Assembly (NCBI GenBank): GCA_016793095.1
Contig: JAEUJQ010000047.1
Span: forward strand, 1 to 64,000
Origin: Myxococcaceae bacterium
GTDB taxonomy: Bacteria; Myxococcota; Myxococcia; Myxococcales; Myxococcaceae
Direction of reading: 5' to 3'
Length of the DNA: 64,000 nucleotides
The position numbers and the translations under genes were made by a program. The stretch's first letter is position 1. Each line of letters opens with the position of its first letter. A model generated the notes under the pieces. The model worked only from the letters and a program-made list of their open reading frames with translations, was not told the origin of the DNA and made no database searches. This document shows, piece after piece, positions 1 to 38,733 of this stretch.

Positions 1-803
1 GCCCCGCCACCCGCTGAACCACCACCCGGTCCTCCCGCCTCGCCACCCGCCGCGCCACCCGCGACGCCACCAGCCGCGCCGCCCGCGACCCCACCAGCCG
101 TTCCTCCGGCCGCGCCACCCGCGGCACCACCCGCGCCGCCAGCCGCACCACCCGCAGCCCCGCCAGCGACCCCACCACCCGCTCCGGCGTCAACTCCACC
201 GGCACAGGGGTGGCGCTCGCGCAGCACCGTCTCGACCCACGTGGGCCCGTGGGCCGACGCACCACTCATGACGCTCAAGCGAAAGGCGTCAGCCGTCTGC
301 ACTGTCCGCGGCGTTGCGCCGTTCGAGCACCAGAGGAAGAGGTAACGCCTCCCTTTCCTGACCTGTCCGCTCCCCGTCGGGTTCGCCTGGCTGGCGCCGC
401 CACGGTACCGGCATTCCACCGAGAGCGACCCGACGCCGTACCGCAGACTCAGTTGCCCGTTTCCAGCGTTCCCCCGCGTCACCTCGATGCGGCGGGGCAG
501 CCGGAACCGCATCGCGGGCGCCACCGTCGCCGAGCCATCCACTTGTCCAGGGGGGACGTACGTCTTCGACGCTTCGAGCGACACCCGCCGACAGCGACGC
601 TCGCGCTGGCACCCGCGCTCTTCCTCCTCTTCGTCCCGCCGGTCTGCCTCATCGTCCTCGTCGTCCGAGTCGCCGTCGTTCCAGTGCACGGCGTCGCGTC
701 GCGCGACGGCATCGGCCCCTCCGGCCTGCGGCTCCTTCCCACAGAAGGACAGGAGCACCAGCCCCAGGAGGAGGCCGACCAACTGGCGCAACGAAGCCCT
801 CAC
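1..803 (-). CDS. Secreted acidic protein with Gly/Ala tetrapeptide-repeat tail, partial
   Basis: This reading frame is open from a GTG at 803-801 to the left edge, giving 267 residues so far with no stop. The GTG overlaps the stop of the upstream parvulin gene (GTGA, 803-800), so it is the fourth gene of the giant-protein operon. It begins with a signal peptide (a Leu/Val-rich core ending LLSFC). The Cys could be a lipidation site, but Phe at -1 is atypical for a lipobox. A very acidic stretch of Asp/Glu follows at about residues 39-55. Then comes a Cys-containing globular part (to about residue 205) and a tail of AGG-based tetrads such as AAGG, VAGG, EAGG and TAGG. I recognise no family. Gly/Ala tetrads of this sort occur in secreted myxobacterial proteins as low-complexity linkers. 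The position suggests a surface partner of the giant protein, which is inference. Confidence 0.75.
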   Translation of the reverse strand, partial: MRASLRQLVGLLLGLVLLSFCGKEPQAGGADAVARRDAVHWNDGDSDDEDDEADRRDEEEEERGCQRERRCRRVSLEASKTYVPPGQVDGSATVAPAMRFRLPRRIEVTRGNAGNGQLSLRYGVGSLSVECRYRGGASQANPTGSGQVRKGRRYLFLWCSNGATPRTVQTADAFRLSVMSGASAHGPTWVETVLRERHPCAGGVDAGAGGGVAGGAAGGAAGGAGGAAGGAAGGTAGGVAGGAAGGVAGGAAGGEAGGPGGGSAGGG

Positions 804-1624
804 GGAGTGCCTCCCGCCAGCGCACTCATCGCCTTCTCGTAGCGCTCGACCTTCACCTCGACCTCGAGCCGCTTCGAGAGCGCCGCCCGCGCTTCCTCAC
901 GGAGCTGTACCGCGAGCGCGCCACGCACCTCGTCGAATGGGCGCTTCACCGGGTGCACCTTCTTGAGTGCCTTCAGCACGTGGAACCCGAACGGCGTCTG
1001 AATCGGCTTCGAGACGGCATTCTCGTCGAGTTCGGCGGCCGCCGCGAAGACTTCCGGCGCGATGGCGCCCTCGCGAACGACACCCACGACACCACCCTTC
1101 TCCGCCGTCGCCCCGTCCTCCGACAGCTCGCGCGCGACCGACTCGAACGCCTCTCCTCCGAGCAGACGTGCCCAGGCGGTGGTGGCCTTGTTCTGCGCGC
1201 GCCGCACCACCGCGACATCTCCCCCGGCCGGAGCGGCGACGAAGACGTGCGCGAGTTCCAGCTGCCGCACCGTGGCGGCGTCCGTCGATTCGTACCGGTG
1301 GAGGAGGGCCTTCTCGTCGGGAATGGGCACTTCGGCGTCGAGCAGGGCCTGCGCCAGAATCTCGCGCTCGGCGGCCTTGATGCGCGCCTGCACCGTCTCA
1401 TTCTTTCCGAGGCCACGGCTCACCGCGGCTGCCGCGAGCCGCTCCTTGTCGACCAGCAGCTCGACGGCCGCCTGCACGTCGCCGGTGCGCTCCGTTCGCC
1501 GCGCCTCGCGCACGTCGCCGACGGTGAGGCGGCGGCCGCCCACCTCGGCCACCACGTCAGGGGGCCGGCACCCTGCGACGAGCAGCACCAGCAGCACGGA
1601 CGAAAGCGTTCTCTCGAGGCTCAT
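800..1624 (-). CDS. Parvulin-type peptidyl-prolyl isomerase lipoprotein
   Basis: This is a 274-residue periplasmic foldase of the SurA/PrsA/PpiC type. It starts with a lipoprotein signal (lipobox VAGC, Cys19), followed by an N-terminal helical chaperone part (about 25-115). The parvulin domain (about 121-223) has the typical pieces: LELAHVFV with His126, FESVARELS at 160-168, the GGVVG turn, and FGFHVLK at 212-218. Of the three parvulin-like proteins here it is the only one that keeps the family's active-site landmarks. The ATG at 1624-1622 overlaps the TGA of the giant gene (ATGA), so translation is probably coupled to the end of that 32.7-kb frame. The stop overlaps the next gene as GTGA. 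The likely role is to assist folding or release of the giant protein in the periplasm, which is inferred from context. Confidence 0.88.
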   Translation of the reverse strand: MSLERTLSSVLLVLLVAGCRPPDVVAEVGGRRLTVGDVREARRTERTGDVQAAVELLVDKERLAAAAVSRGLGKNETVQARIKAAEREILAQALLDAEVPIPDEKALLHRYESTDAATVRQLELAHVFVAAPAGGDVAVVRRAQNKATTAWARLLGGEAFESVARELSEDGATAEKGGVVGVVREGAIAPEVFAAAAELDENAVSKPIQTPFGFHVLKALKKVHPVKRPFDEVRGALAVQLREEARAALSKRLEVEVKVERYEKAMSALAGGTP

Positions 1625-4600
1625 GGCAGCGTGAGGTTTGGCGAGGTGAAGGTGGAGTTGACGTCGGCGAAGGCCGAGGCGGCGTTCACGAGGTTGTCCG
1701 TGGTGACGTCGACACCGCCCTGAATGACGAGCGAGCCGAGGTCCAGCTGCCCCGCCGGCACCAACGGAATCGAGGTGGCCCGCAGCGGCACCGTCGTCGG
1801 GCGACTCCTCGCGTCGACCGTCAGGCTCGCGAACGACGGCCAGAGGTCCCAGGCCTCGACGAACACCGTGCCCGCCCCGCCTCCGCCGTCGCGGCGCGAG
1901 GCGTCGAGCACCCAGGCCGGCGTGCTGTTGGCCGTCACCTTGATGCGCCCGGCGCCGCCGCCCGGCAGGCCACCCAGCACCTCGATGGTGCCGGCCCCCT
2001 GGCCTGAGGCACACGAGACGCGCACCGTGCCGCCCGCGCCACCGCGGAAGCCGCCCGCCCCGTTGGCGCGCAGCACACCGTCGAGCTGCAGCGTGTCCGC
2101 GATGAGCGTCAACACGCCGCCGCCCGCTCCGCCCACCGTCGGCCCCGCCACCTCACCCGAGCCACCACTGCCCGCCTCGCGGGGGTCGCTCACGTCGTCG
2201 TACTCGAGTGACGTCGCCGCCCAACCGCCCGGCCCACCGTAGCTGCCGGCCGCTCCGGCGGCACCACCCGGCCCTTCGCCGCGCTCGGTTCCAGGAGAAA
2301 GGACGAGGCCGCCGAGGTAGCCTGTGCCACTCACGTCGATGCTGCTCGTCGCGTCGACCTCGAAGAGGAAGCCGGCGACGGTGGTGTCAATCTCCAGCGC
2401 GCCAGTGTCGGGAACGGGCGTCAGTCGCACCTGCTGCAGCACCGAGCCGTTCGTCAGCGACACGAGGTCAGGCGTCCACCGGTACACGGGCAGGAAGTCG
2501 ATGGCGCGGGTGATGGTGGAGTTCGACGCGCTCAGCCCCTGCATCGGCAGCGCGCCCGCGCGGAACAGAAGGTCGACGTTGGCGAAGTCCGTCGGGAAGC
2601 CGCTCAGCACCGCGACATCGTCGAAGGACGCCGCCGTACGCGCGGCCACCCCGTCGGCGATGAGCAGGTGCTCCGTCGTCAGCGCGCCGATGAAGTCCAC
2701 GCGGGCGTTGGTCGCCACCGCGACGAGCACGAGAGGCGCCGCGAGGCTGGAGGGTACACCTTCGATTCGCGTCGCGGACACGAGCGGTGCGGCCAGACCG
2801 TTGTTGGAGATGACGAGGGTGCGCACGAGGTGTCCGGCGACGGCGTCATCACGCTCGAGGTACACCGTGCCCGCACCACCGCCCTCCGGCCCGCCGATGG
2901 CCTCGAGCGTGTACGGAACGCTGCTGCTTCCCACGTGCACCACCGCGACACGTCCACCGCCGGAGCCGCTCGCGCCGTTGGCCTGAACCCACCCCGCCGT
3001 GCCCCCGAAGCCTGCGAGATCCGCCACCTCGAGCAGCACACTGCCGCCGGAGCCCGAGAACGTGGGGCCAACGCCCGAGTTCGCCCAACCAGCGAGCGCC
3101 GATGCGCTGATGATGCCGGCCAGCTCGAGCCGGGTCGCCTTCAGGTGAATGCGACCTCCCGCGGCGCCAGGACTCCCGTCGAGCCAGTCGTGGGTCGCCC
3201 ACCCACCGGCCTGGAGGGGCCTGGTGATGTCTGTTGAGGAGATGGCCGGCCCCCCAACACCCTGCCCGCCGTACGTGCCGTTCGCCGGAGCACCCGTCAC
3301 GGCGGTGTAGTCGTAGGCCGTCACGCTGCTCGACCCGTCGACCTGCACGAGACCCGCGACATCGAGGTCGAGCAACGGACCGAAGAGCTGACTCCCGCTC
3401 AGCACCGACAGTGACGCGAGCGCCATCGGAGCTGCCACGCTGACGTTGCACGACGAGAGTCGGAGCCCGGCCGGCGCCGACAGGACGTTGAACTGGGCGC
3501 TGCAGGAGGTGAAGTCCAGCGGGGCCCCTCCGGTGTACGTGAAGGGCGAGTAGGAATAGAGGCCTCCACACGTCGCGAAGGCGGCCGCCGCCGTCGACAC
3601 CGGGCCGCCGAACGTCACGTAGGCCCGGCCGGTCACTGTCACTCCTGTGTAGGTGCCGCCTTCCACATCAGTGTAGAAGGACGGCCAGACGCCCTCGTTG
3701 TCGACGGCGACTTCGCCGTGCGCGTCGAGGGCATTGCGGAAGAACTGTGTACCCGAGCCGCCACCCTCGGTGGCCTTCGTGAAGACGTTGCCTCGCGGGA
3801 AGCTCATCGAGCCGAAGACGACGGCGACACGGCCGGCACCCGCGCTGCGGAGCGTCGCCGGGGCCGCGCCACCACTGGCTTCGACGCTTCCAGTGCCAGA
3901 GAACGCCCCCGACACGGACAGGGAGACGGTCCCGCCCGCGCCAGCCCAGGCCTGCGCGCTCGCATCACCGCCATTCGCCGCCAGCACGCCGTCGAGCTGC
4001 AGCGACGCGGCCGAGATGCGAATGACGCCGCCGCCATTGCCGCCCGGATCCAGGCCGTCGGCCGAGCCGCCGCCACCTGGCAGCACCGGGGCCTTCGACG
4101 AGTCGTACGGCGCGTTCCACGGCCACATCGAGTACGCCCCCGGCGCGCCGTGACTCCCGGCCGCGTTCGGCTCGCCCGAGCCGCCCGGCCCGCGGCCTGC
4201 GCTGGCAAAGTTGTCGCCCGACCGCCCTCCGAGGAAGCCCTTGCGCGAGACGTCGACGCGGCTCGTCCCGTCGATGCGGACGTTCCCGGACGCCAGGAAG
4301 GCCACCTCACCCGTCGTCGCAACCGTGGCCTCGGGCGTCGTCCACGTCGAGCCCGTCAGCTGGACCTCGCCGAGCGCCGCTGTCGGAGGCGTGTTCGCGA
4401 CCCACGTCGAGTTCAGTAGCGCCAGCGACAGCCCAGTCGGCACCCACGGCTTCGCAAGCCGCACGGTGGATGACGTCACCGTCAACGCCGTCAGCCCGGG
4501 CGTCGACAGCGGCTCGTCGAACTCGACAACGGCGTTGTCCAGCACGAGGTCGGCCGCAGAAGTGGCAAGGCTGAACCTCGCGCGAGCCCCACTGCGCACC

Positions 4601-31600: not shown

Positions 31601-34365
31601 GCCGCCGGCACCACCAGGTGCGCCGCAAACGAGCCGGCCTGCCCGGGCACTGGCGAGGGCGATGTCTCGGTACCGATGACCTGCCCGTCGAGGGTGAAGT
31701 CGATGCGCGCGAGCCCGGTGTCGTCTAACGCCCCGACGCTCAGGGTGAGGCCCTGGGTCTGAGCAACGCTCGTCCCGGCCACGGGAGAGACGACCGCCAC
31801 AGTCGGCCGCTGAGTGTCGCCCACGATGGAGACACTGACAGTCGCGCTGCCGCTCTGGCCCGACCCGTCTCGAGCTTCGGCCCGAACGACCGCAGCCGTC
31901 CCCGCGCGCTGGCTCGGCACCCTCCATGCGACTGTGAACGGGGCCGCGGTTGCGCGCCCGACCGGCAGTCCGTCTACGGTGTAGATAACTTCACGAACCG
32001 GCCCGCCGTCATCGAGAACCGCTGCCGTCAGGTTGACGACGGCTCCGGCGGTCACCGTCGCCTGAGCGACGGGCGTGAGGATGGTGACCTGGGGCGGAGT
32101 GTCAGCAACGAGGGCGACGTCGAGTTCGACCCGTGCCGTCTGCCCCTGCGAGTCGGTCGCGACGACCTCCAGCCGGGCCTGGGTGCCAACCCGGCTCGGC
32201 GGTGGCGTCCATGTGAGAGTGAATGAGCGCCCTCCCCCGCTCGCTCCATTCGCGCCGAGAATCGTGGTGCGGTCGACCGCCGCGCCGTCGGCGAGCAGCA
32301 CGACCTCGAGCCCCAGCGCCGCAGCGTCATCGCCCGCAAAGCCCGACACCGCGAGTGGAAGCCCAGCGGTCGCGGTCGCCGTCGGCGGCGGTGGGGACGA
32401 GAGAGAGACGAAGGGCGGCGCGTCGGGCGCCAGCATGACCGCGAGCGGCACGGCGGCAGTCGTCAGCCCCTGGCGGTCCACCGCCTCCGCCCGGATGACA
32501 ACGGCGGAGCCGACCCGGTTCGCGGGCGGCGTCCAGCTCACTTCCCAGAGAGGGACGACGACCGGAAACGTCGCGCCAGCAGGAGCGTTCGGTTCACAGC
32601 TCGGGTGCTGCCGCACCTCGAGGCGAGCCACAGACGCGGTGCCCGCAGGCGCATCGTCCAGACTGAAACGAACCGCCTGGAAGTCGAGATTGGACAGTGC
32701 GAAGGGACAGGCCGTCCAGTTGCCGCTCGTCACGCGCAACGTCAGCGGCGCAGACACCGGGAGCGTCACGCCGGCTGTCGGGTTCTCCCAGACCGGAGAA
32801 AGCCCGCTCACCTGCGTGCCCGCAAGGACGGTGATGGTCGCATCGGGCGACACCGTGCGGTGCCCTGCTGAGTCGACGACCGCCGCAGCAACCCGCAGGA
32901 CCGCCCCCTGCGTGGGAGGGGCGCGCATGGTGAAGCGGTACGGCGTCGCGGTGCTCGCCCCGGCAGGAACACCGTTCACCAGCCACTCGACCCGCGCCAC
33001 CGCCACGTCGTCCTGGGCGTGAGCGCTCAACTCGAATGACGCGCCAGCTGCCACGGTCGGCGGAGCCTGCAACTGGATGGTAGGCGCCGCGTCCTGCACG
33101 GTGACGACAGTCGAAGCAACCTGCCCTCCACTCGCAACACGCACCCGCGCACCCCCGGGCCGCAGGCCTGTCACCGCGCCGTCAACCGACACCGCGACGA
33201 CGGAGACATCATCGCTCGTCCACACCGTCCCGAGGACGGGAGGCGAGACATCGACAGACGCCCCCGAAGACAGCGTCGCGATGGCGCGCAGGCGCGTGCT
33301 TCCCCCAACGCTGGGCACGACGGGCGAGGCGGGCTGCAACTCCAGCGACGAGACGCCGGAAGTCGAGTCGACGATGACGGGCACCTGACGGGCCATGCCC
33401 GCGTAGACGACGTCGAGAACCGTCTGACCGTTGCCGCGTGCAACCACGTCGCCGCTGTCAGTGACGGCGCAGACGTTCTCGTCGCGGCACCTCAGTGACA
33501 AGCCGGCGGCGGGGGCGCTCAACTCCACCTCGCCCGCGAGGGCAAACGAAGCCGTCAGGCCGATGCGAAGCCTGCTGCCGAATCCATCCCTGAGGAGAGC
33601 GGGCGAGGGACGAGGAGCAATGTCGAGCAGCGTGTCGAGCGCGTTGCCGATGAACTCCGTCAGGCTGCGGTGCGTTCGCCGCCCGTACACGTCCTGGAAC
33701 GTGAGGTCAGCGATGACGACGCCATCGATGGGCAGACTGCCCGCCACCGGCACCGTCCAGGAGGCCCCTGTGGCGGAGAGGCTCCCAGCCAGGCGCCGCG
33801 TGTTCGCGAAGGACGTGGCCTGAACGTCTTTGAGGTTGCCGTTCGCAGCCCGGAGGATGGCCCCGCTCACCCCCACGACGGTTGCTTCGGCCACCGCGAC
33901 CGCGCCAACGGTCTTCACCTCGAGCACCACCGCCCCATTCGACGTGGAGAGCTTCGGTTTCTCACTCACCTTTACGAGCGCCGTCGCCTGGCTCCACGAG
34001 ACTGTCCTCGCAACACCGGCGCTTCCGTCGCCAGCAAGCGGCTCGGCAGTGATGGTGAGAACACCGTCCTCAGGCAGTCCGGCAGACAGCGGCGCGAGGA
34101 AGCGGAAAGGAGCGACGCCCGTCGGGTCGGGACGCAGCGAGGTGGTTGGCACCTGCGCAAACGGGCCGGCGGCCGATGTTCCCTGGATGGTGACACGCAG
34201 CGCAGCGACGTCCCCCTTGGTGAAAAAGGCGAGGTCGAGCGCGGTGTCTCCAACGCGAAGCGGACGGTGAGGAACGATGGCCTGAACGCTGCCGGGGCCC
34301 GCCCACGCCGCGACCGCCCCCAGCAGGGCCCACACCACAAATGCCCTGGCGTGGAGTCGCCTCAT
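1621..34365 (-). CDS. Giant exported modular protein (10,914 aa): Ig-like, LVIVD propeller, Big_5, TIG and Gly-rich modules
   Basis: A single frame of 10,914 codons, roughly 1.1 MDa by average residue mass, with no internal stop. Residues 1-28 are a Sec signal peptide (Arg-rich start, hydrophobic core, cleavage near VQA). In order: an N-terminal beta-rich part and Big_2-like segments (about 30-420); about 20 Ig-like repeats with the recurrent DDV.V..VE motif (about 420-2790); seven units of LVIVD-type propeller, Big_5-like and two TIG/IPT domains (about 2790-7110); Ig-like and propeller blocks (about 7220-9640); and four Gly-rich repeat-passenger-like blocks to the C terminus. It has no transmembrane helix after the signal, no LPXTG and no MYXO-CTERM tail. 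The ATG at 34365 overlaps the TGA of the upstream parvulin-like gene. The module types are those of adhesins and extracellular structural proteins. A surface or matrix role is inferred; the export route is not visible here. Confidence 0.95.
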   Translation of the reverse strand: MRRLHARAFVVWALLGAVAAWAGPGSVQAIVPHRPLRVGDTALDLAFFTKGDVAALRVTIQGTSAAGPFAQVPTTSLRPDPTGVAPFRFLAPLSAGLPEDGVLTITAEPLAGDGSAGVARTVSWSQATALVKVSEKPKLSTSNGAVVLEVKTVGAVAVAEATVVGVSGAILRAANGNLKDVQATSFANTRRLAGSLSATGASWTVPVAGSLPIDGVVIADLTFQDVYGRRTHRSLTEFIGNALDTLLDIAPRPSPALLRDGFGSRLRIGLTASFALAGEVELSAPAAGLSLRCRDENVCAVTDSGDVVARGNGQTVLDVVYAGMARQVPVIVDSTSGVSSLELQPASPVVPSVGGSTRLRAIATLSSGASVDVSPPVLGTVWTSDDVSVVAVSVDGAVTGLRPGGARVRVASGGQVASTVVTVQDAAPTIQLQAPPTVAAGASFELSAHAQDDVAVARVEWLVNGVPAGASTATPYRFTMRAPPTQGAVLRVAAAVVDSAGHRTVSPDATITVLAGTQVSGLSPVWENPTAGVTLPVSAPLTLRVTSGNWTACPFALSNLDFQAVRFSLDDAPAGTASVARLEVRQHPSCEPNAPAGATFPVVVPLWEVSWTPPANRVGSAVVIRAEAVDRQGLTTAAVPLAVMLAPDAPPFVSLSSPPPPTATATAGLPLAVSGFAGDDAAALGLEVVLLADGAAVDRTTILGANGASGGGRSFTLTWTPPPSRVGTQARLEVVATDSQGQTARVELDVALVADTPPQVTILTPVAQATVTAGAVVNLTAAVLDDGGPVREVIYTVDGLPVGRATAAPFTVAWRVPSQRAGTAAVVRAEARDGSGQSGSATVSVSIVGDTQRPTVAVVSPVAGTSVAQTQGLTLSVGALDDTGLARIDFTLDGQVIGTETSPSPVPGQAGSFAAHLVVPAARLAGASTRRLGARAVDGAGNIGVAPEVQVGITADGAPTVSFVTPSVGASVTSGTAVTVTLAAQDDVAVQDVVLLMDGVERGRRSVPPFQFALSVSGSPRAVTLEARVTDTAGQTAVATRSLQVVDDSEPPLGAFRTPLAGSRVFAGRTIPVEVIATDNVGPTRVVLTPAGHPPTTNTAPTIDGLYRVFRFEVAIPSTAAGSTLALTAVVSDAAGLSTTKTMSLFVTTDEPPRVQLVTPAAGATYREGREVAVSASVLDDEGVVAVVGMSGGALVGPLGTGTAVLDTSQRQRVTVRAPIISRGQSATVGLIARDTSGQTGEAEVVLNVTADTEAPTATLTLPLPGTPARVVSVRSGESIGLRVETADDVFVASATATIDAGVADAGVVVLTSTDGRLETTQVANPALPGTIITEERYRATFTGTLQTAGLQPGSYPVVVDVSDLAGNLATSPRFVLEVRPAVDVEAPRIALALRDTPSSTTCVQGSAVSLDITISDDGQLTTAAATQDGSPLSPLPVPTGSLLTHRLPVVIPSFAAGGFTTFVVSASDAVGRTTNAVVSCKLLPDEAPVVTLTQPTSGATFTEGRRESVAATVSDDVGLSLAAVALSSAAVDGVDGGVAMGGSFTPLSATFNVEGVSEVRVALSTTRAEVTAATTVAGAGRVVQVGVPAGTTVTAEYAYIAASPPTPDAGVTFSGRQSQTSAGVPLAFSWPTSVSVRHVRFEFSTGGASITIEPGQQPQVTLEEGSSRLSTVLTRQAVQPNRHSTASFSLRAPLWRGTSQLSAVVCDTAAHCRTSSRSQRVLPDVASPRAVLTAPPSGVDVVVGQVVQVATAVSDDVEVVRAELLVDGVLVSRVEGFGLSTPSFTWLAPATPGLMPVALVARATDAAGNATESAPTYVNVVEDVGPSITFTSLSSPVEQVSQLELSSGFVRLLQGQTAHLAVLVEDDVGVARVRAEFDGATVLDQNYGARVVSAGLNLVPPPGAIGTARVLVVRATDGAGREASRRLIVETRPPQAPVVGLVLPPVNAQVPEGTIQLVFEALAGDDLDMSSVDFFLNGQPALQVSASAAQLIQATAIDAEGLPVAQDPDIRAVVASFPPPFNDLTRLRRYRGVVQVPTGLITRGAGANVLTLRAVATDAERLQAFAERTYAIVEDTTAPQATISRPTASQDVIEGTVLRIEAEARDNVFVDTVEISMGPSLQGLQVVHTASGFPPVNGVAGSAFDVYAPPQSIEVALPRLAQLGASGPTPYFVAVRARDSSGRWSALTLQAVDLVPDVPPTVSIASPVDGSPVVQGHFVEVAVLAVDDVAVSSVSLVVDGVVFPVVRALSPFTFRVPVPGAATELRVQARGVDSFGHLVNSALLRLPARVDGAPTISITRPTNGSSVTEGRFTSVIIAAADDVAVSRIDAVVAGLATGPLSVTSSSAPFAFEVPLPFGSAGRQLTVSATAVDTGGHSASAAPVSFSVVADTVGPTVSIRAPAAGSEVVAGQMMPVDIQAEDNIDVASVSVSVNGIAVGALATPPFRFSAPVPTNAAGATWVVSVTAVDTSANSTTSQVSVDIVADQRPTVSLVAPAQVVGGRPVTFAATAGDDVGIARVEFHVGTSPGTLAPVASRYVLPFQQPWDVPTNAVGQQLFALARAYDVTGQSADSNVVTFQVTADTPPLVAMVRPAQGSFVFEGRSLVLEADASDAEGPVAQVVFLVNGARVDAATQPAGVPGFPGRFRGRWVPPVGSGNRTFAIRALAVDSAGQETASAPVTVGSVTDTVPPDVQLLDPPGADVVTEGDTVAVRAFAQDNASVAAVEAFVNGVSIGTTATPSTSVANRPVYSVPWLVPNGAGQTRRLTMRARDSASNSATSEPVDVEVGMRTSSTLESSLVHVMAARADGLVAVATSSGLRLARRQTGALAWQGGVPLPQGEPVAVALAEAPSGTPAPLANLVAVAMAPAAERAPELILVDAATAALPSIVGQIDLPNGVPSAIALRGRLAFVAMGTLGVTVVDVTAPTSPQRVATRPVVGAARGLAMFGDLLLVASDSGGLRVLDARTPGLVERGFAALPGRAMSVAIDGELALVGCEAPDSPVALVNLSDTSAPGLLSVTSQRSARRDTAMREAVEVAFSGQVAVTSGVLRDQDDVAVKGLLTASAVWGGGLQPFVRANLFLDQSRRFSEPRRHSVSLVAGQPIALVSASELGDFALPQFAVVAVSPAPASDAATPSTSVALSFNLAPDPLSVGNAVSLRLGDPVLGPAVAATASVSGATLVLTPGAPLPLSGRVFVVVESSLRSTTGVALVRRFESSFRVAPSSAGAPVVSSVSPAQGPVEGGTTVTVRGTGFTPGVRVFFGDFEAQPVAVLSSTEFTAVSPPNVEGPAFVRVVNVDGLEAGVVGGFVYVPVLDVRYVQPASGPLAGGRRVEVVGTGFQRGAIVRFDGAAATNVVVQSSGRLAATTPPGVFGPAAIEVENPDGRLSRLEAGFMYTDVSVTGRLARYDPQADGPVRPIGKLNQSFITDLSIEGDRVVVVQGAAIAQSASSVSELLLRSQLGSLSVVNVDAGVPLVMGGVSFVPPYAPVGVVTKGGTAWVTLEGRNVGGIEVEGENTASLAVVDVTNPTAPTVGQVMPFAGAAGPLLLMGDMLVVASGAEGLTVFSVAEPARPVLIGAVKPIGSNGLAIDEPVVDIAALRGHVFATTGVSQRTLVLDLSRASPVTVAEVPAARLRLRGGDGLGLGSGVLSAVAASPVTRARLVAPVQPLLQRLVFKEAAAGVHLGLGAGAVDGSIGVIQLQALGQPELPNSINVLDLFPVVDTRGLGWMGDTVVAAAASVIRSDFPPLDALVTAKMPFPMVVAVDPQVDADAVLVTRLIRVELNTVVSNATSTTVRLVRDDGSALGVAVPVTVTPTGRVIEVSPTAALDVNARYRLELSGLSDVVTAASMPAPFRSAFTTASGTTAREMTLASVSPREGPNTGGTLVTLTGTGFVNGSEVRVGGELAVVQSVAPDGSSVSFTTPPGAAGLAAVTVRSPQGPQLVRMGAFLYVEPLRLLSVSPASGPTSGGTRVTLTGRGFATSGGVAVAFGSQPAAAVRVVGIGRIEVVTPNGVVGPVDVRVTNTSTGSSSTLAAGFEYEQPTQSIVRLGVSRVHDALVLGDTAYLGTSAGLVAVDLSGLERFGPNAGQPIPPSERDGLVDRDENGADDRLLATLATTTDVTSIAQPREGGSRLWMTQAGQVVSPGGSQSWEGRAAAVDVTFVHRGTRDDVSVAVATSRPAPLGAFGIARQGDEALLAQGSASQAVSRLDVSGAGLFPVDSLAVASGGQSIAVGDGVALVATGTRNPQTWRVDGAGLTRVSTRGALGVSGTLSVPAQRVRVEGALGVVAAGSQGLVLVDLLATPFVVRSTTAVGGFARDVRVQGRTAWVAVEGVGLVAVDVSNPEAPQRLFTVAGGSAVAVAYGNGRIGSVRQMTEGLAFSFAPFSSFVPLSATVAAGQVVPLATPSFSVVFSTAVDASTAAVAFSLTADGAVVPGVLEAGAGAASSTLLFRPAGQLPADAAMRLSVSTALRSQSGLALERPLVVDFRSARAVGAVPSIALISPRVGPVAGGVQADVLGAGFDNDALVFIGGAPAPVLARSSSRLQVTTPPGTAGLADVVVQNAASGLFAVRAGGYLYRQPLSLSTAAPAFLNPRGGSSVRLTGAGLLPAWLDPAGALRVRIGGLEATSVSVESSSVVTALAPPNSFGSVAVQVTTGDGTEQFTLPNRLTYGLPFVTEELTPGLAPRTLVEDDTTPGLLHAAAGSTGENSYLQPYFGPLTGAGTVTQSYRLASFDVGMAGRPRLQAALPVSTPNALADEAVYRLARNQQLREGLEFSPDSLDLHSRQGRLFLANGLSGVTLLRGRGDGGVTGLFVETEGRARPEPASLVSRVMPTQQGLWALETTLVPLAADSQGCQPTVPALSATGAARYVDARVPTDPVVVGTLASGAANAPVALVPWKQGLVVATGHSMGKSFVRCNTPFPPPPDYSFTGPRLSFGPVLPRAPTAPPLPSTASGELLITDSQVPGAAVLRRLEVPYNIADMVMVGDVAVVAAPNIGVVFIDVTQAPPVEVARVAFDDSLSNVPGTPRRLKLFGNVLFVAAGAGGVALIDVTSPAQPRVLSAGNTEVALDVVPVQDRLYVATGKGLAELAMPFSFVRDVMPARGATVPPAASPMVVRLSRPISPQSVTNSSVQLVGPNGPVQTSLSVNNDFGRQAFEVLVTPAQALEPQQSYRLALSTAVADQRGGRLLVPFESSFTTAVAGATQPRLDEVVPPWLGVDGGVVTLSGVGLAEVTTVRVGAQSLVPTSRSATALTVTVPGRNAGFADVTVVDTSGLSSVLPAGLQVVDALTGRVHVQPDHGPVAGGTRVRLSLEGRAPLVAGSRVFVGGRLADETDVDSPSVVSFTVPEGAGAGIAPIAVERPGEAATVVATFSYEGPAGTKVDLPGFPPRVISELELVGTSWFVGSSATPSGLEVFDVSIPERPIRLGGLGASGPVRGLDIEGDVAFLAEDAFGVAVVSVADRTQPFEVSRIVSSGLATDVQVAGDTLLVSLVDTSALPGSIRVLSANEPGFTPRGLLLLDADPLSIDVMDGRLFALTTDVTTVRGSLEGGALELREYDAASGARLSRVVVEAGLADYEARVASRLTVRGGVAWVTVGTRVFIFDVTGATPVLQRSSDMGEAARGVALVGCTAWVGTEGVETVQSLPPLTLAITAMSPRTGSTVPGEVLITADATLPVAPDSLTASTFAVSVGGVPISGTRRIEFTTTGAVLVFTPTTPLTPGVVVRARVDGITDFEGRLLARPAETVFTVAATGALQPVITALTPATGFVDASTTVTVHGSGFRAGTTVRVGGVEAQVTSSTSTTLTALVPPAPGFIAGPAHVEVSDPDGPNAVRAGGFLYVERLRLISISPDNAPQRGGVTVAVTGRGFRPGLAVEFGGTTSFLVSVQGTTRASVAAPAHAAGRVDVVVRMGSESATLPAAFLYGSGAVSEYRTGAVSDLIVEEGIAYASFGGTTPIVGRDGTVYAAAAESGTRGLALIDLSEPNTLRTIVSLPQGAAVTRLEKVGTRLYAAAGSGGLIEVDVSVPAQASVSRSLATGGAAVDVVVKDHLAFVADNLGVAVVDVDRFVLAGRIPITGGATSLAQARGTLFVGTGSTVAPQLRLFDVHNAAWAPLGSMSLPAVAKHLAVSGTRAFASLGSARQVAIIDVATPSGPAPAGTIQLVDALGAGWVSAEQTAVVGDVVLVAAGGGDLQRFVAPRGAAPQFVDAASVFGDVRAVGFEKRNAFVGTLFLDVGGAAVELPLASSADATGTVTGSLSTVALDFLPVRDVMPPVGGRIALTATPEVVLGELPDTSTLTQLVLESSSGAPVSVTRTVVAEPGGARVRLTPGTPLVPAQGYQVKVLPGLTGLSRSSLGVTLESSFDTATTSATEMPVVRTLEPSWALEGGGGVMDIVGEEFMSLAAVKLGGAAAQVLSVSADGRRLTVRVPSGPRGLAAVEVINPNGLSTKALGAFRYLEPPRLDSVTPSFAEFESGATVTLRGAGLHANSIITFGSVPATNVTLAADDSVSVRVPDGVTGVVDVVAGTPSPGGVASSTLLNGFTFTLRRDRLTQGQFGPSARVGSALLVSEGPDLVPFDVSVPSQPVRRPAVSGVNSAGAMTLVGRELFVAGNGVVARYDVDTCGAAPGALCLPQELQRIPVTPAVQFTAIAARSNAAWVVVSGSNEVVLLGRVGNNWQVVASAFVGTGTVRDVALTDDALLVLVQSGPAASLEVRDFATPTLPMLGSLALARAASSLAVEGRRVAIAMETGVALVSVVSRSAPSVISSWTTSSNAPTKVALAGPFVLAADSARLWLLDATAATLAARTWGIVTGAPGGVDLVDGEVLVTTSTGLASYALPYPSLRNSSVAVAPAGPVFVDWASTTPAAVLAGTSLALSRGATAVGGATARSGTRLSFTPAQALVAGETVTATVSAPPFPVVGSGWTGVLSFPVFVAASPAGLVATSATPTFGPTTGGTLVTIDGSGFDATTEVRIGGVLTVQQPGGTATRLEVLTPGASQPGPATVTLSNAAQESAEVASGFAYIAPLSLNAVVPGAVNEQGGPVVLHGVGFTRGLVVRMGGVVVTPASFSPTALSVAVPAGPVGPVTIELTQAGAAPVLDSSLLARIDGTAPTLVSLSPVDEDGSQDVRLQPTFLARFSEPISSASLSTVRLVLDGTGATVAAAVATGGDAQSVVLTPSAALSSTTRYRFDASLVRDVSGNAAGTAAVRIFRTRDIVPPQASLVLATDGRTVTNGLQLAANVPWAFQAIITDDSGPLSGDSATFTVDGVPAQRVGSGRWSFTWPQSAVGTNSTLILTARDASQNTTTVTFSVVVADDTPPSVVFAQPLAGATFEEGGAIPVSLTATDNNGVAQVRLYVDGRPWKTLSVASGVSATLTETLRVPAVSTPRTMELLAEAVDSRGTRGVSSPVLLTLVPDGTAPQVSFLSPTAGQQVPGGSPVPLVVSVVEDSALNEVIFKADGAVVARRTSAPWSAEWRAPVPASTQVVALTVEATDARGNVGAASRLVSVSNVERAPTVTILEPGNFSWDEFTHVPVRLGVNGAERVTGLTVSLGGVVRSFVRVGELVSFTLPAPEVKPPAGYSGPRYEESVVLTVSWTTDNLGLGTARQSIVVRDVTAPAAVAVVSVPTPPVMLGGGAVDVSLAVDAGSPTAMVTSRPGVRVGSAVVVQSASGRFPLPSGPEGSTVEVGVTASVLPFVGAGLSEFQLSEQSTLRVFAGPPTTVAVPGRGSLVSLVSEGSRTALVRSVPGGFADVILLDGGAVSASRRLDGTPTAAAWLNGALIVATRGSGGVALRRFTMPTLAEAGSSVVRTSVSALEARGGALYVGTEEGLEVRDGTLSLVVRMPLDGVRALASARDRLAVATRSRVLLYEVRSFGFLVQLHAVARTGVTQVAVTSAPEGVCAAGEVLECFDAALVSRGGTALAGPAVSLTATGPWVAVAGARDTRVFDVTGVPTVHGLFETIGRARLEPGALMAMGAQGLVSWPLIRGSAAPTVSLTAQGTATAGADIPLVATVTDGADPLNAWRAELLVDGVVVDTFDGQTPTHVALPSTPRAVTLSLRVKDLSGQVATTQAIVTTTLAASGPAVSLISPIESVSGGQLAVRVESDEPGRLAQVEYVVSGAAPVLVAQPGFAASLPLPVVSVDTPVLLAATGLDALGRRGPTSTRPVLVAAAPPLPPLLSLEVVGGAPYVEGTRRRVRVTGTPSLAATDTVRVLADGVEAALASAPDFDVEVALPLVTASRTVTLTAEPIDEAGRVGPATAVSVVVVDDLSVPALTLVVQPAGAVVAQGSVLLAQATVSDQTATTVTTSLRIDGLEVATDGAELSFAVPATTPVGAVIEVRASAVDVASNAVTATATRRVVAQPVAALSAPGATGAFVPGGGVSVWGDLVAVGTPTGVALYHLARSPAPVLTPVSTWSLGEPPASIAMGNGFLLVARASSGLEVLAVGSGGVLSPVESIAGRWARLASAGDVFCASRPQFGRSDAFDAVILDVQPGARARTIALPFSGPLPVVSGTLGRCLHRIDDARQGIAVPSAAGAWATSSVVSQALGIAVLELPVGALSVGGGTARVHRSTGFFGATEFVDVSLPSTALDAVVGGGQALIATNDGSLNVVDVRDVSRPALLSSTPFGARRLAVSGGVVVGVTENALRLATLTRPHVDATGVQFTLPTIDSAVALSAGRGTIVVAASQQGLLRASFDAPQLTDVATRPGAISWVDRQGDVIFAQDGSALVAWLDQGTWPGGLGSAVPVQGFETVNQVAVTAGRLWAVSGASLRTAPWAYQYPFSVTGLESTTLAGATMDLAADEDLAVIAQGTSFGVVGLSPSGVPAVIATVPGGAMKAALDGDLLAIASGTSVSLYSVATPNSPALRSTLTARGTIRRLRLSGRTLVASEGPSGVETWDVTNPTAPALRAQYAVQRAEDAVVADGHLVVADASTGVRVFPALSASTPSVSWTAAPPDSAPIGSLFAIGAEARGVAVDEAWVRVDGQLVGRLPASGSALVAMPPRAVGGSLVAVSVEARAAGGRVGTSATKHVRAVPANNAQATLSFASVPSGAAGARGVVAVGASTAVPMPSLVTLTLDDVFLASTASPLDGSFRFNIPVVVPAVASSGVRTLTATLVDGLGRVSSVSTAWTLSADAVAPTLSGLPAALKGEPAVNSFTLSSADSSALTVELFVDGVLANAASSPQGSVQLPTTLRFPAARVGQSVTLRAVATDGTGLTTEVSQSYVVQPDGVAPVVSLNVPLSVAEGARFFQPCDAFDIDGDATSLELFVDGVLVSSVTSPGASFLSQVPPVVISAPALSTAASISLEAVARDVRGRESRVARAIAVVPGAAPVLTFEQMPSGSVLEGDNLALTNNAFVRAFDSSNRVHRLEVFLEGVSIGVAGPAVTEPTGRDVTLTLDASLPLLAQTATATFNAVVTNALGQQTSLSGVVPLAPNPPPTITFTRSVPAPLVGETVTWCVRGEDSDGRLRSGFALSVAIDGVAQLGATSCGQHCREFCTTRTAVAPQSFVMAATATDVLGKSTSAQDSLGFAVNQPPAVAIEAPAQGPEGGQVSVRASVMDERGLAWLEFRVGAQVLQRFTSPVVGQQYVVQVPTPSLGTLTVTAEAEDVGGLRGVATADVQVVPASQLGHISETDFSFDDTDLLISGTELRVDGVHRFRSITIVDGGVLTHSSQGLSGTKSFDLEVTGEVLVAVGARIDATGRGGLGGFVAPNSDSAGRTSQNVAGPEGASGSHAGPGEAVGASQPVVGVVDDAAFVGGGGSGTVGQPLEPGASGGGLIRLRAQSLLLDGAIEANGDRPTRVGQRGGAGGGVRLEVGSLGGAGAVRANGSGGGSGGRVVVRYASLAGFDLANVQARGDGAGGVGTVLLQQTSAADAGVGPLGLLRLENGGQPSAFTTVPGGSYARLEVRSGARARFSLATSAADLVLDNAVVEFDEPLSTPGLTALTVTSSTVRLAKPWVPTGLSLALLNSTWVANTPPTAALGEVQLTGSTWTTPEATVATTGEVAFLASGNVRIDGTSRVDVSRKGFLGGRSGDNFASAGRGPGGSGEPNAAGSHGAPGAYSMWPWNAPYDSSKAPVLPGGGGSADGLDPGGNGGGVIRISAASLQLDGVLAANGGDASAQAWAGAGGTVSLSVSGAFSGTGSVEASGGAAPATLRSAGAGRVAVVFGSMSFPRGNVFTKATEGGGSGTQFFRNALDAHGEVAVDNEGVWPSFYTDVEGGTYTGVTVTGRAYVTFGGPVSTAAAAFATCGGLYSYSPFTYTGGAPLDFTSCSAQFNVLSAPAGLRLSSCNVSVAAPMALASLSVLSGSQLFGPLLDLDVAGLVQVDGSSSVTAYDYTAVTGAPANGTYGGQGVGGPAISSTDITRPLQAGGWATHDWLDGSPGAAGGRIHLKATRLELAGIISASALAGWANSGVGPTFSGSGGSVLLEVADLAGFGGTAGWVQANGASGSGGGRVAVVHVGSSSVPYTLEAIGGPEGGGAGTVYLERDDAVAGHLVRTLVISNNGLAAPLVSATRIEGVPSSLAAPLVLVAVATNARVDFIGALTTEHLLIADGVAARTAASFDDVAVLSGFPTDFANVDLLFRAGALPMQGLSASNSTITRAIDFLPVYRWTPDLVSLTNGSVLQQVRLTPVPDTGALEIDTTVAGFLFEVDATSSIDVSGTGYLGGLVLSPGTERGEGPGGAAGAAGSYGGPGGWAATSLEYDDVSDPREAGSGGSGEVAGPTVGGAGGGVLTLIADTLQLDGVLRANGAGGFRGGAGGTVRVSCASGQGAGTIEVLGGLPGGGAGRIKVTANSTPAWVLDASRRDGGGGAGTVFVEAWDLWPSFASLTVDARSRPTTVPLRATSIPLVPAGQLDLGSLVIQGGVDVTTDNLVNAASAFADVNSTFTSPNLTLP
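1800..5450 (-). repeat. Four Gly-rich beta-solenoid-like blocks at the C terminus of the giant protein
   Basis: Residues about 9640-10850 hold four related blocks of about 200-290 residues (about 5.45-4.64, 4.33-3.66, 3.40-2.80 and 2.40-1.81 kb). Each runs through a strand with V.VDG(A/T)..(I/V)D.(T/S)G.G.LGG, a Gly/Ala/Ser-rich loop with GGGGSG-type runs, a G.I.L.A..L.LDG.(I/L).A(N/S)G strand, and an AG.V.L...  GTV(F/Y)(L/V)E ending. This layout resembles the Gly-rich parallel beta-helix regions of secreted myxobacterial proteins. There is no autotransporter barrel after it; the protein ends at TLP. Confidence 0.7.
5450..13030 (-). repeat. Mixed Big_5 / Ig-like / propeller blocks in the giant protein
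   Basis: After the seventh TIG pair the order changes. There is one Big_5-like domain (about 13.03-12.70 kb), about five Ig-like repeats (12.70-11.21 kb), a propeller (11.20-10.40 kb), about four Ig-like repeats (10.39-9.24 kb), a longer propeller (9.23-7.49 kb) and about six to eight Ig-like repeats (7.49-5.48 kb). TIG domains are absent here. The boundaries are read from the protein motifs and are approximate to about 50 residues. Confidence 0.65.
9195..9205 (-). repeat. Homopolymeric G11 tract inside the giant gene
   Basis: Eleven consecutive G on the coding strand encode Pro-Gly-Gly-Gly-Val around residue 8388, at the start of a propeller block. It is the longest mononucleotide run I noticed in the window. 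A gain or loss of one G would shift the frame. One of the two shifted frames is open only to 8982, so about 2,500 C-terminal residues would be lost. This is a candidate slippage (phase-variation) site, or alternatively a sequencing-error hotspot. Confidence 0.85.
13030..25990 (-). repeat. Seven propeller / Big_5 / TIG / TIG supramodules
   Basis: Residues about 2790-7110 repeat a composite unit of about 550-710 residues seven times. Each unit is a beta-propeller with LVIVD-type strands (patterns like VDVSNP..P), then a Big_5 (SbsA-like) Ig fold ending in a long R..F.S.F-type strand, then two TIG/IPT domains with the SGP..GGT.V...G.GF signature. TIG pairs lie at about 24.69-24.17, 22.76-22.25, 20.88-20.31, 18.75-18.24, 17.09-16.58, 15.24-14.72 and 13.53-13.04 kb. 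The order is constant in every unit, so the whole composite was multiplied as a block and then diverged. Confidence 0.8.
26000..33100 (-). repeat. Array of about 20 Ig-like repeats in the giant protein
   Basis: Residues about 420-2790 consist of tandem units of about 105-120 residues. Each has a PTVSI..P..G..V..G strand, a (S/A/T)DDV.VA.VE..VDG centre and an A.A.D..G core near the end. I count about 20 copies of the DD/DN centre. The copies have diverged at the DNA level, so this is an old protein-repeat array and not a recent DNA amplification. The fold is Ig/cadherin-like (Big_9/PKD-like), and the conserved acidic pairs could bind Ca2+. The binding is inferred from the fold family. Confidence 0.85.
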
Positions 34366-35219
34366 GGAAACGCGGCTGGGTTCACCTGCACCTGCGCCTG
34401 GGTCTTCAGTCTCTGGACGAGTTCGTCGAACACCTTTCTCTGCTGCACAGGGCCGTAGCGGTTGAGGATGGCCTGCCGCGTCTCGTCGTAGGTGGCCTCA
34501 CGGGCCTCTTCCCGTTGGGTGGCGACCAGGACAGCGAGGCCCGAAGGCGTTCGCACCACTGGCGAGGCTTCTCCCGTCTTCAGCGCGAGTGCGGCAGTTG
34601 TCTCCTCGTCGGACGCCTCCGTCACCCAGCCGACGTCTCCACCGGTTGCGGCCTCAGGTCCCTCGCCCAGCGCTGCCAGCTTCGACATCGGCTCCTTCTT
34701 TGCGACGACTCGGGCACGGAGCGCCTCGGCGCGCTGCTTCAGCGCCTTGTCTTCGGGCCTCCCGCGCACCAGGAGTCTCGCCACGCGCACGCGCACCGGA
34801 GTCCGGAACTCGGAACGATGCGCCTCGAAGTACGCCTTCAGTTCATCCTCACGGGGCGGCCCCTTCGCCTTCGTCGCATCCTCGAGGAGCGCCTGAATCG
34901 CGAGCCGTTCTTCGAGTTCCCTCAGCTGCTCCTTGACCTCCGCTGTCTGCGTGAAGCCGCGGCGGCGCGCCTCGTCGTGCAGCAGCCTCTTCGCCAACAG
35001 CGCCTGGACGAATTCACGCTGGCCGTTGTCGGTCTGGAACTGCTCTCGGAGCGCGGTGGGAAGTCGCTGGGCCGCAAGGCGAACCTCGTCGGTGGTGATA
35101 ACACCGCCATCCCACCGCGCGGCAACGGAGGGCGATATGGGTGCACTGGCGGCGGACGGCGACGAGCCCTGGGCACAAGAGCAATGCGCGACCGCGAACA
35201 GTACGCACAACAACTTCAT
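34362..35219 (-). CDS. Parvulin-like (SurA/PrsA-type) exported foldase, degenerate active site
   Basis: This 285-residue protein heads the giant-protein operon. I chose the ATG at 35219, although the frame extends 20 codons upstream, because it gives a clean signal peptide (MKLLCVLFAVAHCSC) and has a GAGGGG Shine-Dalgarno at 35230-35225, five bases upstream. Cys13 or Cys15 may be lipidated, but the lipobox is imperfect. A SurA-N-like helical region (about 30-135) with ALREQF.TD...R.EFV.ALL is followed by a parvulin-like domain (about 140-245) in which the usual His positions are replaced (VARLLV, SGLAVLV). It may therefore be a chaperone without isomerase activity. Its TGA overlaps the ATG of the giant gene. 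A dedicated chaperone role for the giant protein is inferred from this coupling. Confidence 0.82.
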   Translation of the reverse strand: MKLLCVLFAVAHCSCAQGSSPSAASAPISPSVAARWDGGVITTDEVRLAAQRLPTALREQFQTDNGQREFVQALLAKRLLHDEARRRGFTQTAEVKEQLRELEERLAIQALLEDATKAKGPPREDELKAYFEAHRSEFRTPVRVRVARLLVRGRPEDKALKQRAEALRARVVAKKEPMSKLAALGEGPEAATGGDVGWVTEASDEETTAALALKTGEASPVVRTPSGLAVLVATQREEAREATYDETRQAILNRYGPVQQRKVFDELVQRLKTQAQVQVNPAAFP

Positions 35220-36515: not shown

Positions 36516-36647
36516 ATGCCAAGACAGGCACGCCAAGACATGCGCGCGGCTCTTCGTCTCGGGCGCGTGGCGGGTCGCACCTTCCGCTTCCGCGTCGACG
36601 TGAAGGCCGGCCCCTCCTGGGGCGAACTGACAGGGGTGTCACGATGA
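36516..36647 (+). CDS. Small ORF upstream of the excisionase-like gene, 43 aa, unknown
   Basis: A 43-codon frame from ATG 36516 (or 49 codons from GTG 36498) ends in a TGA that overlaps the next start as ATGA (36644-36647). The product is Arg-rich and basic (MPRQARQDMRAALRLGRVAG...), ending WGELTGVSR. I recognise no family. The overlap with the next gene and its place beside an integrase suggest a small element-borne protein. The open frame continues upstream without a good start, so it may also be the tail of a broken gene. Confidence 0.35.
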   Translation: MPRQARQDMRAALRLGRVAGRTFRFRVDVKAGPSWGELTGVSR

Positions 36648-37116
36648 GGCTCGACTCGGAGTTCCACGTCGGCGGCCCCGTTCGCGACCCCACGCCCGAG
36701 TTCGAGGCGTGGTGGGCCAGCGAGAAGGCCTGGTACGACGCCCGGCCCACGACGTCCCAGCGCACCGCGCCCGACGCGCCGCAGCTCCACCACTCGCCGA
36801 GGCCTCGGGCTACGCGTCGCCGCGCGACGGGCACCACCGCAGCTGGGGACGATGACGACCCCGAAGCTTCCGGGGCGCGGCCACCGCAGCAGACGCGGTT
36901 CGCGAGGCCGACACGAACGACACGCCTGACGGACGCCGTCACAGCGCATGAGGTCCTGACCGTCGACGAGGCTGCGGCCTTGCTGCGCGTGAACCCCAAG
37001 ACCCTTCGGTCTGCCATCGCGACAGTCAGGTTCCCGGCGTGCGTCGGCTCGGCCGCGTCATTCGACTTTCCCGCCCCGCCCTGTTGGAGTGGCTGAGCGG
37101 GAAGCAGGCGACCTGA
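36644..37116 (+). pseudogene. Excisionase/MerR-like HTH protein, frameshifted near the 3' end
   Basis: The frame from ATG 36644 encodes about 126 residues. It has a Pro/Arg-rich linker and then a helix-turn-helix of the excisionase type (VLTVDEAAALLRVNPKTLRSAIA). In that frame it ends at 37096 with an unnatural Cys/Pro tail. One base out of frame, from about 37027, the expected end of the domain appears: QVPGVRRLGRVIRLSR followed by PALLEWLSGKQAT, with stop 37116. A single-base deletion near 37020-37027 therefore separates the two halves. The restored stop lies 12 bases before the integrase ATG, and the natural xis-int spacing supports this reading. The intact protein would direct excision or act as a regulator. 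Confidence 0.65.
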
Positions 37117-37128
37117 ACGGAGAAACGC

Positions 37129-38366: not shown

Positions 38367-38369
38367 TTG

Positions 38370-38733
38370 TGGAGGCGGTGGGAATCGAACCCACGTCCGA
38401 AAGCCTTCAGCTCTAAGCCACTACGTGCGTAGTCCGCGAATCGATGACGCCACCTCGTCGTCCACGGACGGACTCCGCGATGGCCTGACTGGGAAGCTCT
38501 CGCCCCTCCTCATCCAGTCCTGGTGAGAGGCCAGCTCGCATTGGTTCGGTCGACCCTCAGCTCACGAGCCGAAGCTCAGGCGACCGTGCGTGAACCGTTT
38601 TTCAGGCGGCCAGCGCAAGCTCAACGTTGTCGTTGGCTTTTTTGGGTTTGCCCATTTGGATTTACGAGTGTGATGAGCCCACTCGGCACGCGTCTCAGGG
38701 CCTCCATGCCCCCGTCGAAGCCAGGTCGCCCCC
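38370..38733 (-). ncRNA. ssrA: tmRNA (transfer-messenger RNA)
   Basis: This is the complete tmRNA that rescues stalled ribosomes. The 5' end GGGGGCGACCTGGCTTCGAC starts at 38733. Its first seven bases pair with CGCCTCC at 38377-38371 (one G-U), forming the acceptor stem. The T arm GTGGG-TTCGATT-CCCAC directly precedes the 3' strand. The tag frame at 38637-38605 encodes ANDNVELALAA followed by TGA 38604-38602. The discriminator A is at 38370. The next encoded bases are CAA and not CCA, so the CCA must be added or restored after transcription. The 3' end abuts a tyrosine-recombinase gene. Confidence 0.95.

What the first reader, a model, noticed from the sequence alone, without database searches (positions are those of the whole stretch)
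1..35219. A translationally coupled four-gene operon built around a 10,914-codon gene with paired foldases
A single 32.7-kb frame is flanked on both sides by parvulin-like exported proteins, and all three junctions are 4-nt ATGA/GTGA overlaps. A third related lipoprotein diverges from the operon head. Parvulins are periplasmic foldases and chaperones (SurA/PrsA family). Their tight coupling to one giant client suggests a dedicated folding and export system for a megadalton surface protein, for which I know no described counterpart.
Basis: partly seen in the sequence, partly recalled or inferred. Interest (0 to 1): 0.9.

Follow-up and report, generated by a model that had tools for sequence, protein, structure and literature searches.

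The report
Foldase–giant–foldase–Rhs toxin cassette
In one third of Myxococcaceae genomes, a conserved mobile gene cassette joins a roughly 10,000-residue secreted protein, two or three dedicated protein-folding lipoproteins and a variable-tipped Rhs toxin, which suggests that the giant and its foldases are part of a contact-dependent weapon whose delivery is still unexplained.

Summary
A 10,914-codon frame (1.10 MDa) lies between two parvulin-type lipoproteins with three 4-nt overlaps, and a third parvulin diverges. It is cut by the contig end, continues on another contig of the same genome, and is a ~4,300-residue Rhs/YD-repeat lipoprotein with a DPxG self-cleavage motif, a 350-residue tail and a small overlapping downstream gene. 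Across 96 Myxococcaceae genomes, P1, the giant and this Rhs class occur in exactly the same 32. Ten other large Rhs genes have no such foldase nearby. The giants are colinear end to end (9.7–11.5 kaa). A full cassette with a 12,684-aa giant sits in another family. Rhs cores are ~43% identical on average and their tails ~5%: a polymorphic toxin. One clade has moved the giant behind the Rhs gene. P1 has lost both parvulin histidines in all 35 copies; P2 mostly keeps the second. Here the cassette lies beside an integrase at ssrA, probably on an integrative element.

Best reading: a Rhs antagonism (kin-discrimination-type) system with obligate foldases and a megadalton companion, probably a surface fibre. 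Surface location, folding clients and delivery are inferred. I found no description of this combination. New variant of a known kind.

The parts
34362..35219 (-). P1: 285-aa exported parvulin-family protein (Rotamase_2; CBF2/PEB4-like); both parvulin histidines replaced
1621..34365 (-). Giant: 10,914 aa, 1.10 MDa; signal peptide, Ig arrays (Big_7), about 7 units of Big_5-TIG-TIG-propeller, Gly-rich C-terminal module
800..1624 (-). P2: 274-aa PrsA/SurA-type parvulin lipoprotein (LVAGC lipobox); both histidines kept in this copy
1..803 (-). N-terminal 267 codons of the Rhs/YD-repeat lipoprotein, cut by the contig end; rest on contig C72 of the same genome
35315..36217 (+). P3: divergent 300-aa lipoprotein with SurA_N-like and Rotamase_2 regions
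36644..37096 (+). Small HTH_17 protein next to the integrase (excisionase-like by position; weak match)
37089..38366 (+). Tyrosine integrase abutting the 3' end of tmRNA
38369..38733 (-). tmRNA (ssrA); its 3' end 38370-38390 is the candidate attL

Best explanation
The locus is a horizontally moving antagonism cassette. SHOWN by sequence: (i) P1, the giant and a ~4,000-6,000-aa Rhs lipoprotein form one conserved gene set, with P2 and P3 nearly always present; (ii) the Rhs protein has a YD-repeat cocoon, the PxxxxDPxG autocleavage motif, a hypervariable 310-404-aa tail and usually a small gene immediately downstream; (iii) the giant is a full-length conserved secreted stack of Ig, TIG and propeller domains. 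INFERRED: the giant and the Rhs protein pass the inner membrane by Sec. P1 and P3 (chaperone-like) and P2 (probably an active prolyl isomerase) are membrane-tethered periplasmic helpers that keep these enormous proline-rich beta-proteins export-competent. The Rhs lipoprotein ends up on the cell surface as a toxin cocoon. The giant forms a long fibre of the same apparatus that makes contact with, or positions the toxin against, neighbouring cells. The downstream gene gives immunity. The outer-membrane exporter is not encoded here and is unknown.
For: P1, giant and Rhs-class genomes are the same 32 of 96 (P1 against Rhs Fisher p 3e-26, not corrected for relatedness). P2 is found in 31 of the 32. 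Giants align colinearly over roughly 7,500-10,900 residues at 32-55% identity. The full cassette is in G131 of another family, and giants are in five families in all. Rhs cores average 43% identity and tails 5%; one close pair has 72% core and 6% tail identity. A small ORF starts within about 30 nt of the Rhs stop in 14 of 17 relatives, and by a 4-nt overlap in the window's genome. The Rhs core model matches solved Rhs cocoons. Ten other large Rhs genes lack such foldases nearby. Cassette phylogeny rejects genus monophyly. The giant-unit model has pLDDT 88.
Against: No expression, localisation or toxicity data. The tails' toxic activity and the immunity role of the downstream ORFs were not tested. 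No physical link between giant and Rhs is shown. One clade carries the giant downstream of the Rhs gene, so P1-giant adjacency is not obligatory. G071 has P1-giant-Rhs units without P2 between them. G157 has a giant but no match to this Rhs class. No outer-membrane exporter is encoded.
Confidence: 0.6

Rival explanations
1. One reading: a dedicated folding and export system for a giant surface adhesin or matrix protein; the Rhs gene is a neighbour with its own role.
For: P1 and giant always co-occur; 4-nt overlaps flank P2; the giant is built of adhesin-type domains.
Against: The Rhs class has exactly the same distribution, P2 is usually coupled to the Rhs gene as tightly as to the giant, and in one clade the foldases sit next to Rhs, not next to the giant.
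Confidence: 0.2
2. The foldases serve the Rhs lipoprotein only; the giant is an independent, co-transferred adhesin.
For: In arrangement B the order is P1-P2-Rhs with the giant behind.
Against: The giant is never missing from a family genome that has P1 and Rhs, although one clade rearranged the locus.
Confidence: 0.12
3. Pure hitchhiking: unrelated cargo kept together because the cassette moves as one block.
For: Patchy distribution, genus monophyly rejected, integrase and att-like repeats at ssrA in this genome.
Against: The same set with the same internal 4-nt coupling persists across families at ~30-40% protein identity and at different chromosomal sites; unlinked cargo would be expected to separate.
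Confidence: 0.08

Closest known systems
Large surface Rhs kin-discrimination toxins of Myxococcus xanthus (Rhs4/Rhs5; review PMC10433427)
   Same: About 4,000-aa or larger Rhs proteins with signal sequences and variable C-terminal tips, in myxobacteria, carried on mobile elements, not delivered by T6SS according to the review.
   Different: The review mentions no foldases or giant partner. Whether Rhs4/5 belong to the cassette class was not tested; ten other large Rhs genes checked here have no such foldase nearby.
Bacterial teneurin-like proteins (PMC13018210)
   Same: Lipoprotein in Gram-negatives, Ig and TTR-like N-terminal domains, YD shell, DPxG cleavage, polymorphic C-terminus with a small gene directly downstream; frequent in Myxococcaceae.
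   Different: No NHL or teneurin FN-plug family found in the Rhs protein. Best folds are T6SS Rhs cores (Z 25) ahead of the TLP (Z 19). A term search of the paper found no isomerase, foldase or gene cluster mention.
CdiA/CdiB contact-dependent inhibition
   Same: A very long secreted protein plus a variable toxin tip plus a small immunity gene (from own knowledge).
   Different: Here the long protein and the toxin protein are separate genes, no CdiB-type transporter is encoded, and foldases are part of the operon.
PrsA, SurA and CBF2/PEB4 periplasmic foldases
   Same: P2 is closest to PrsA and SurA parvulin domains; P1 aligns with CBF2 over most of its length.
   Different: Those are mostly general housekeeping factors (own knowledge). 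P1, P2 and P3 are cassette-specific groups and P1 has lost the catalytic histidines.

Membership tests
Polymorphic Rhs toxin system | YD/RHS repeats with Rhs-associated core | tested here: met
   RHS_repeat, DUF6531, YD_repeat_2x and Rhs_assc_core; Rhs cocoon fold Z 25
Polymorphic Rhs toxin system | PxxxxDPxG autocleavage motif before the tail | tested here: met
   Present in the window genome's copy and in 15 of 17 complete relatives
Polymorphic Rhs toxin system | Hypervariable C-terminal tip after a conserved core | tested here: met
   Mean identity 43% core, 5% tail
Polymorphic Rhs toxin system | Toxic activity of the tip and cognate immunity | not testable with these tools
   Only small downstream ORFs seen
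Bacterial teneurin-like protein | NHL propeller between FN-plug and YD shell | tested here: inconclusive
   No NHL or TEN_NHL Pfam hit in four Rhs proteins; model matches Rhs cores better than TLP. Not filed as a TLP
Parvulin-type prolyl isomerase (P2) | Parvulin domain | tested here: met
   Rotamase 62.6 bits against cut-off 21.7
Parvulin-type prolyl isomerase (P2) | Active-site histidine pair | tested here: inconclusive
   H/H in the window; second His 30 of 32, first position H 17 and Q 14 of 32
Parvulin-type prolyl isomerase (P1) | Parvulin domain | tested here: met
   Rotamase_2 51.4 bits against cut-off 27
Parvulin-type prolyl isomerase (P1) | Active-site histidine pair | tested here: not met
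   R and A/S/G/V/L in 35 of 35; called a pseudo-parvulin
Integrative element at ssrA | Integrase at the tmRNA 3' end and a distal copy of the att core | tested here: met
   Integrase 37089-38366; 20 of 21 nt repeated at C9:182385-182405 outside any tRNA or tmRNA
Integrative element at ssrA | The cassette lies between the two att copies | tested here: inconclusive
   The cassette adjoins the integrase, but contigs C23, C72 and C9 are not joined

The most novel reading that the evidence does not exclude
The giant plus its dedicated (pseudo-)parvulins are the missing assembly and delivery apparatus of T6SS-independent surface Rhs toxins in myxobacteria: a megadalton contact fibre made and carried together with its toxin on mobile elements, that is, a new class of contact-dependent weapon.
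Probability: 0.35. Interest if true: 0.88.

Novelty: new variant of a known kind. Interest (0 to 1): 0.78.

Why it matters
How signal-peptide-bearing Rhs proteins of several thousand residues leave a Gram-negative cell and reach a neighbour without T6SS is open; the 2023 review of myxobacterial killing systems says delivery is not T6SS dependent and only presumes a CDI-like mode. This cassette names a defined gene set that is always inherited with one class of such toxins, so the question becomes a deletion experiment. It also gives a rare case in which proteins of about a megadalton have a conserved partner gene set, hence a testable job, and a simple system for studying how a cell folds and exports a 10,000-residue protein.

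Tried and rejected
1) From I first read a set of loci as P1-P2-Rhs without the giant and inferred that the giant had been lost once. A family-wide search with a giant segment and the locus sequences show the giant behind the Rhs gene; the loss claim is withdrawn and the single-clade result reinterpreted as a rearrangement. 2) I first called the fourth gene teneurin-like because of a weak TTR_TEN1-4 hit (below its cut-off); no NHL or FN-plug family was found and Rhs cores fit better, so it is filed as Rhs. 3) The cassette as a general companion of all large Rhs genes: rejected by ten controls. 4) Phage records with P1 and plasmid records with a giant segment: no match. 5) PADLOC anti-phage models: no match. 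6) The giant as an assembly artefact or a run of near-identical repeats: rejected; no Ns, internal repeats only 25-40% identical, and colinear homologues.

Full report
OBSERVATION. The window is the start of contig C23 of an 8.8-Mb genome. The minus strand carries an open frame of 10,914 codons at 1621-34365 (1.10 MDa, pI 4.9). It cannot be chance: the longest open run in 50 shuffles was 598 codons. Upstream P1 (34362-35219) and downstream P2 (800-1624) overlap it by ATGA, P2 overlaps the next frame by GTGA, and P3 (35315-36217) diverges. All three flanking proteins match parvulin families above or near their Pfam cut-offs. P2 is nearest PrsA and SurA parvulin domains; P1 aligns with Cell-binding factor 2 over residues 59-278.

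THE FOURTH GENE. The frame running off the window at base 1 is the N-terminus of a lipoprotein that breaks in a Gly-rich repeat. In the same-genus relative G095 the matching gene is a 4,341-aa protein, 57% identical to the window fragment over residues 74-200, with Ig domains, DUF6531 and RHS repeats. The remainder of the window's copy is on contig C72: 4,072 further codons, a DPVG...DPSG motif, a 350-aa tail and a 139-aa gene overlapping by 4 nt. The core model (pLDDT 79) is a Rhs cocoon: best hits are T6SS Rhs cores (Foldseek E 1.8e-37; Z 25).

POLYMORPHIC TIP. In 15 complete relatives the 1,200 aa before the cleavage motif average 43% pairwise identity and the 310-404 aa after it 5%; for example 72% core and 6% tail for G056 copy 1 against G065. 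A small ORF begins within about 30 nt of the Rhs stop in 14 of 17 relatives. This is the pattern of toxin and immunity pairs; activity is untested.

CO-OCCURRENCE. Searches of 96 family genomes with P1, P2, a Rhs segment and a giant segment find strong P1, this Rhs class and the giant in exactly the same 32 genomes. P2 is in 31 of them, plus G055, which keeps only P3 and P2. Named carriers include Myxococcus xanthus AM003, M. vastator, M. eversor, Pyxidicoccus caerfyrddinensis, Citreicoccus inhibens and several Corallococcus. Ten other large Rhs genes (3,100-4,000 aa) of the family have no such foldase in their fetched surroundings. Across 195 genomes of the phylum, giants also occur in G121, G131, G133, G155, G156 and G157, and this Rhs class in G121, G131, G155 and G156. 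In G131 the whole order P3<>P1-giant(12,684 aa)-P2-Rhs(6,109 aa) is intact. G157 has a giant without a match to this Rhs class.

ORDER AND COUPLING. Arrangement A is P3<>P1-giant-P2-Rhs-small gene. In one clade (SH-aLRT 100) the order is P1-P2-Rhs-small gene-giant. G071 has two tandem P1-giant-Rhs units without P2 between them; one giant overlaps its Rhs gene by 4 nt. The giant/P2 overlap is kept in frame in 19 of 20 arrangement-A loci and the ATGA/GTGA stop context of P2 in 24 of 27, but the P1/giant overlap only in a few. In G060, G064, G076 and G079 a second, 1,384-1,411-aa gene lies between P2 and the large Rhs gene; the one scanned has RHS repeats.

THE GIANT. Relatives align along nearly the whole length at 32-55% identity, with fairly even conservation up to about residue 9,400 and a replaceable C-terminal module. 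Internal repeats are old (25-40% identity) and include about seven units of 600-650 aa. A model of one unit (pLDDT 88) has Ig-like, two IPT/TIG and a propeller domain; Foldseek finds plexin IPT regions and propeller proteins. A signal peptide is present by inspection; no membrane anchor or transporter domain was found by Pfam.

THE FOLDASES. On one tree P1 and P2 are each one group; P3 is nearly so, with one distant outgroup parvulin joining it on a long branch. The two parvulin histidines are replaced in all 35 P1 sequences; P2 keeps the second in 30 of 32 and has H or Q at the first; P3 varies. So P1 is probably a binding chaperone and P2 the isomerase; this is inference from residues.

MOBILITY. 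An integrase abuts the tmRNA 3' end. Twenty of 21 nt of that end recur at C9:182385-182405, outside any tRNA or tmRNA and followed by a tmRNA-type terminator; same-genus G090 shows the same pair. The cassette adjoins the integrase, so it is probably carried by this element, but the contigs are not joined. In G095 the cassette sits elsewhere without an integrase in view. Genus monophyly of the cassette is rejected for both large genera.

LITERATURE. The myxobacterial review (PMC10433427) describes large signal-bearing Rhs toxins in kin discrimination whose delivery does not depend on T6SS; PMC10047993 places them on mobile elements; PMC13018210 describes teneurin-like toxins. No paper in the library holds both 'parvulin' and 'polymorphic toxin', and the 2012 polymorphic-toxin survey has no isomerase or foldase term in the text held. 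Subscription papers are mostly not held, so novelty is judged on this library only.

VERDICT. The better description is a Rhs polymorphic-toxin cassette with obligate foldases and a megadalton companion. The cassette as a unit is well supported; the mechanism (surface fibre, clients, delivery) is inference at about 0.5-0.6.

Noticed in passing
window 36644-38733: HTH_17 gene and tyrosine integrase abutting ssrA; a 20-of-21-nt copy of the tmRNA 3' end lies at G000:C9:182385-182405, and the same pair occurs in G090.
   Followed up: partly
L230-L233 (G131:C1:2632001-2712000): A 12,684-codon giant and a 6,109-codon Rhs gene in one intact cassette in a different family of the same order.
   Followed up: yes
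L134, L135, L165 (G071:C5): Two tandem P1-giant-Rhs units without P2 between them; a P3-P2 remnant sits on contig C7 of the same genome.
   Followed up: partly
L161, L162, L163: A lone P3 beside cysN-type genes in G070, G073 and G061, at the same chromosomal site as several arrangement-B cassettes: a possible remnant or pre-insertion state.
   Followed up: no
G157:C80:18009-19994: A 9,923-aa giant frame in a genome with no match to this Rhs class.
   Followed up: no
L128:15381-19535: A second, 1,384-aa RHS-repeat gene between P2 and the large Rhs gene; genes of similar size and place in G060, G064 and G079.
   Followed up: partly
window 38870-43009: Bacterial alpha-2-macroglobulin-like gene (MG2, A2M, TED domains) next to tmRNA on the chromosomal side of the integrase.
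   Followed up: no
L248:5005-17028: A different 4,007-aa Rhs class with a transglutaminase-like domain and no foldase nearby.
   Followed up: no
G000:C72, Rhs tail before the stop at C72:8364: The 350-aa tail holds an HEVRH stretch that resembles a metalloprotease HExxH motif.
   Followed up: no
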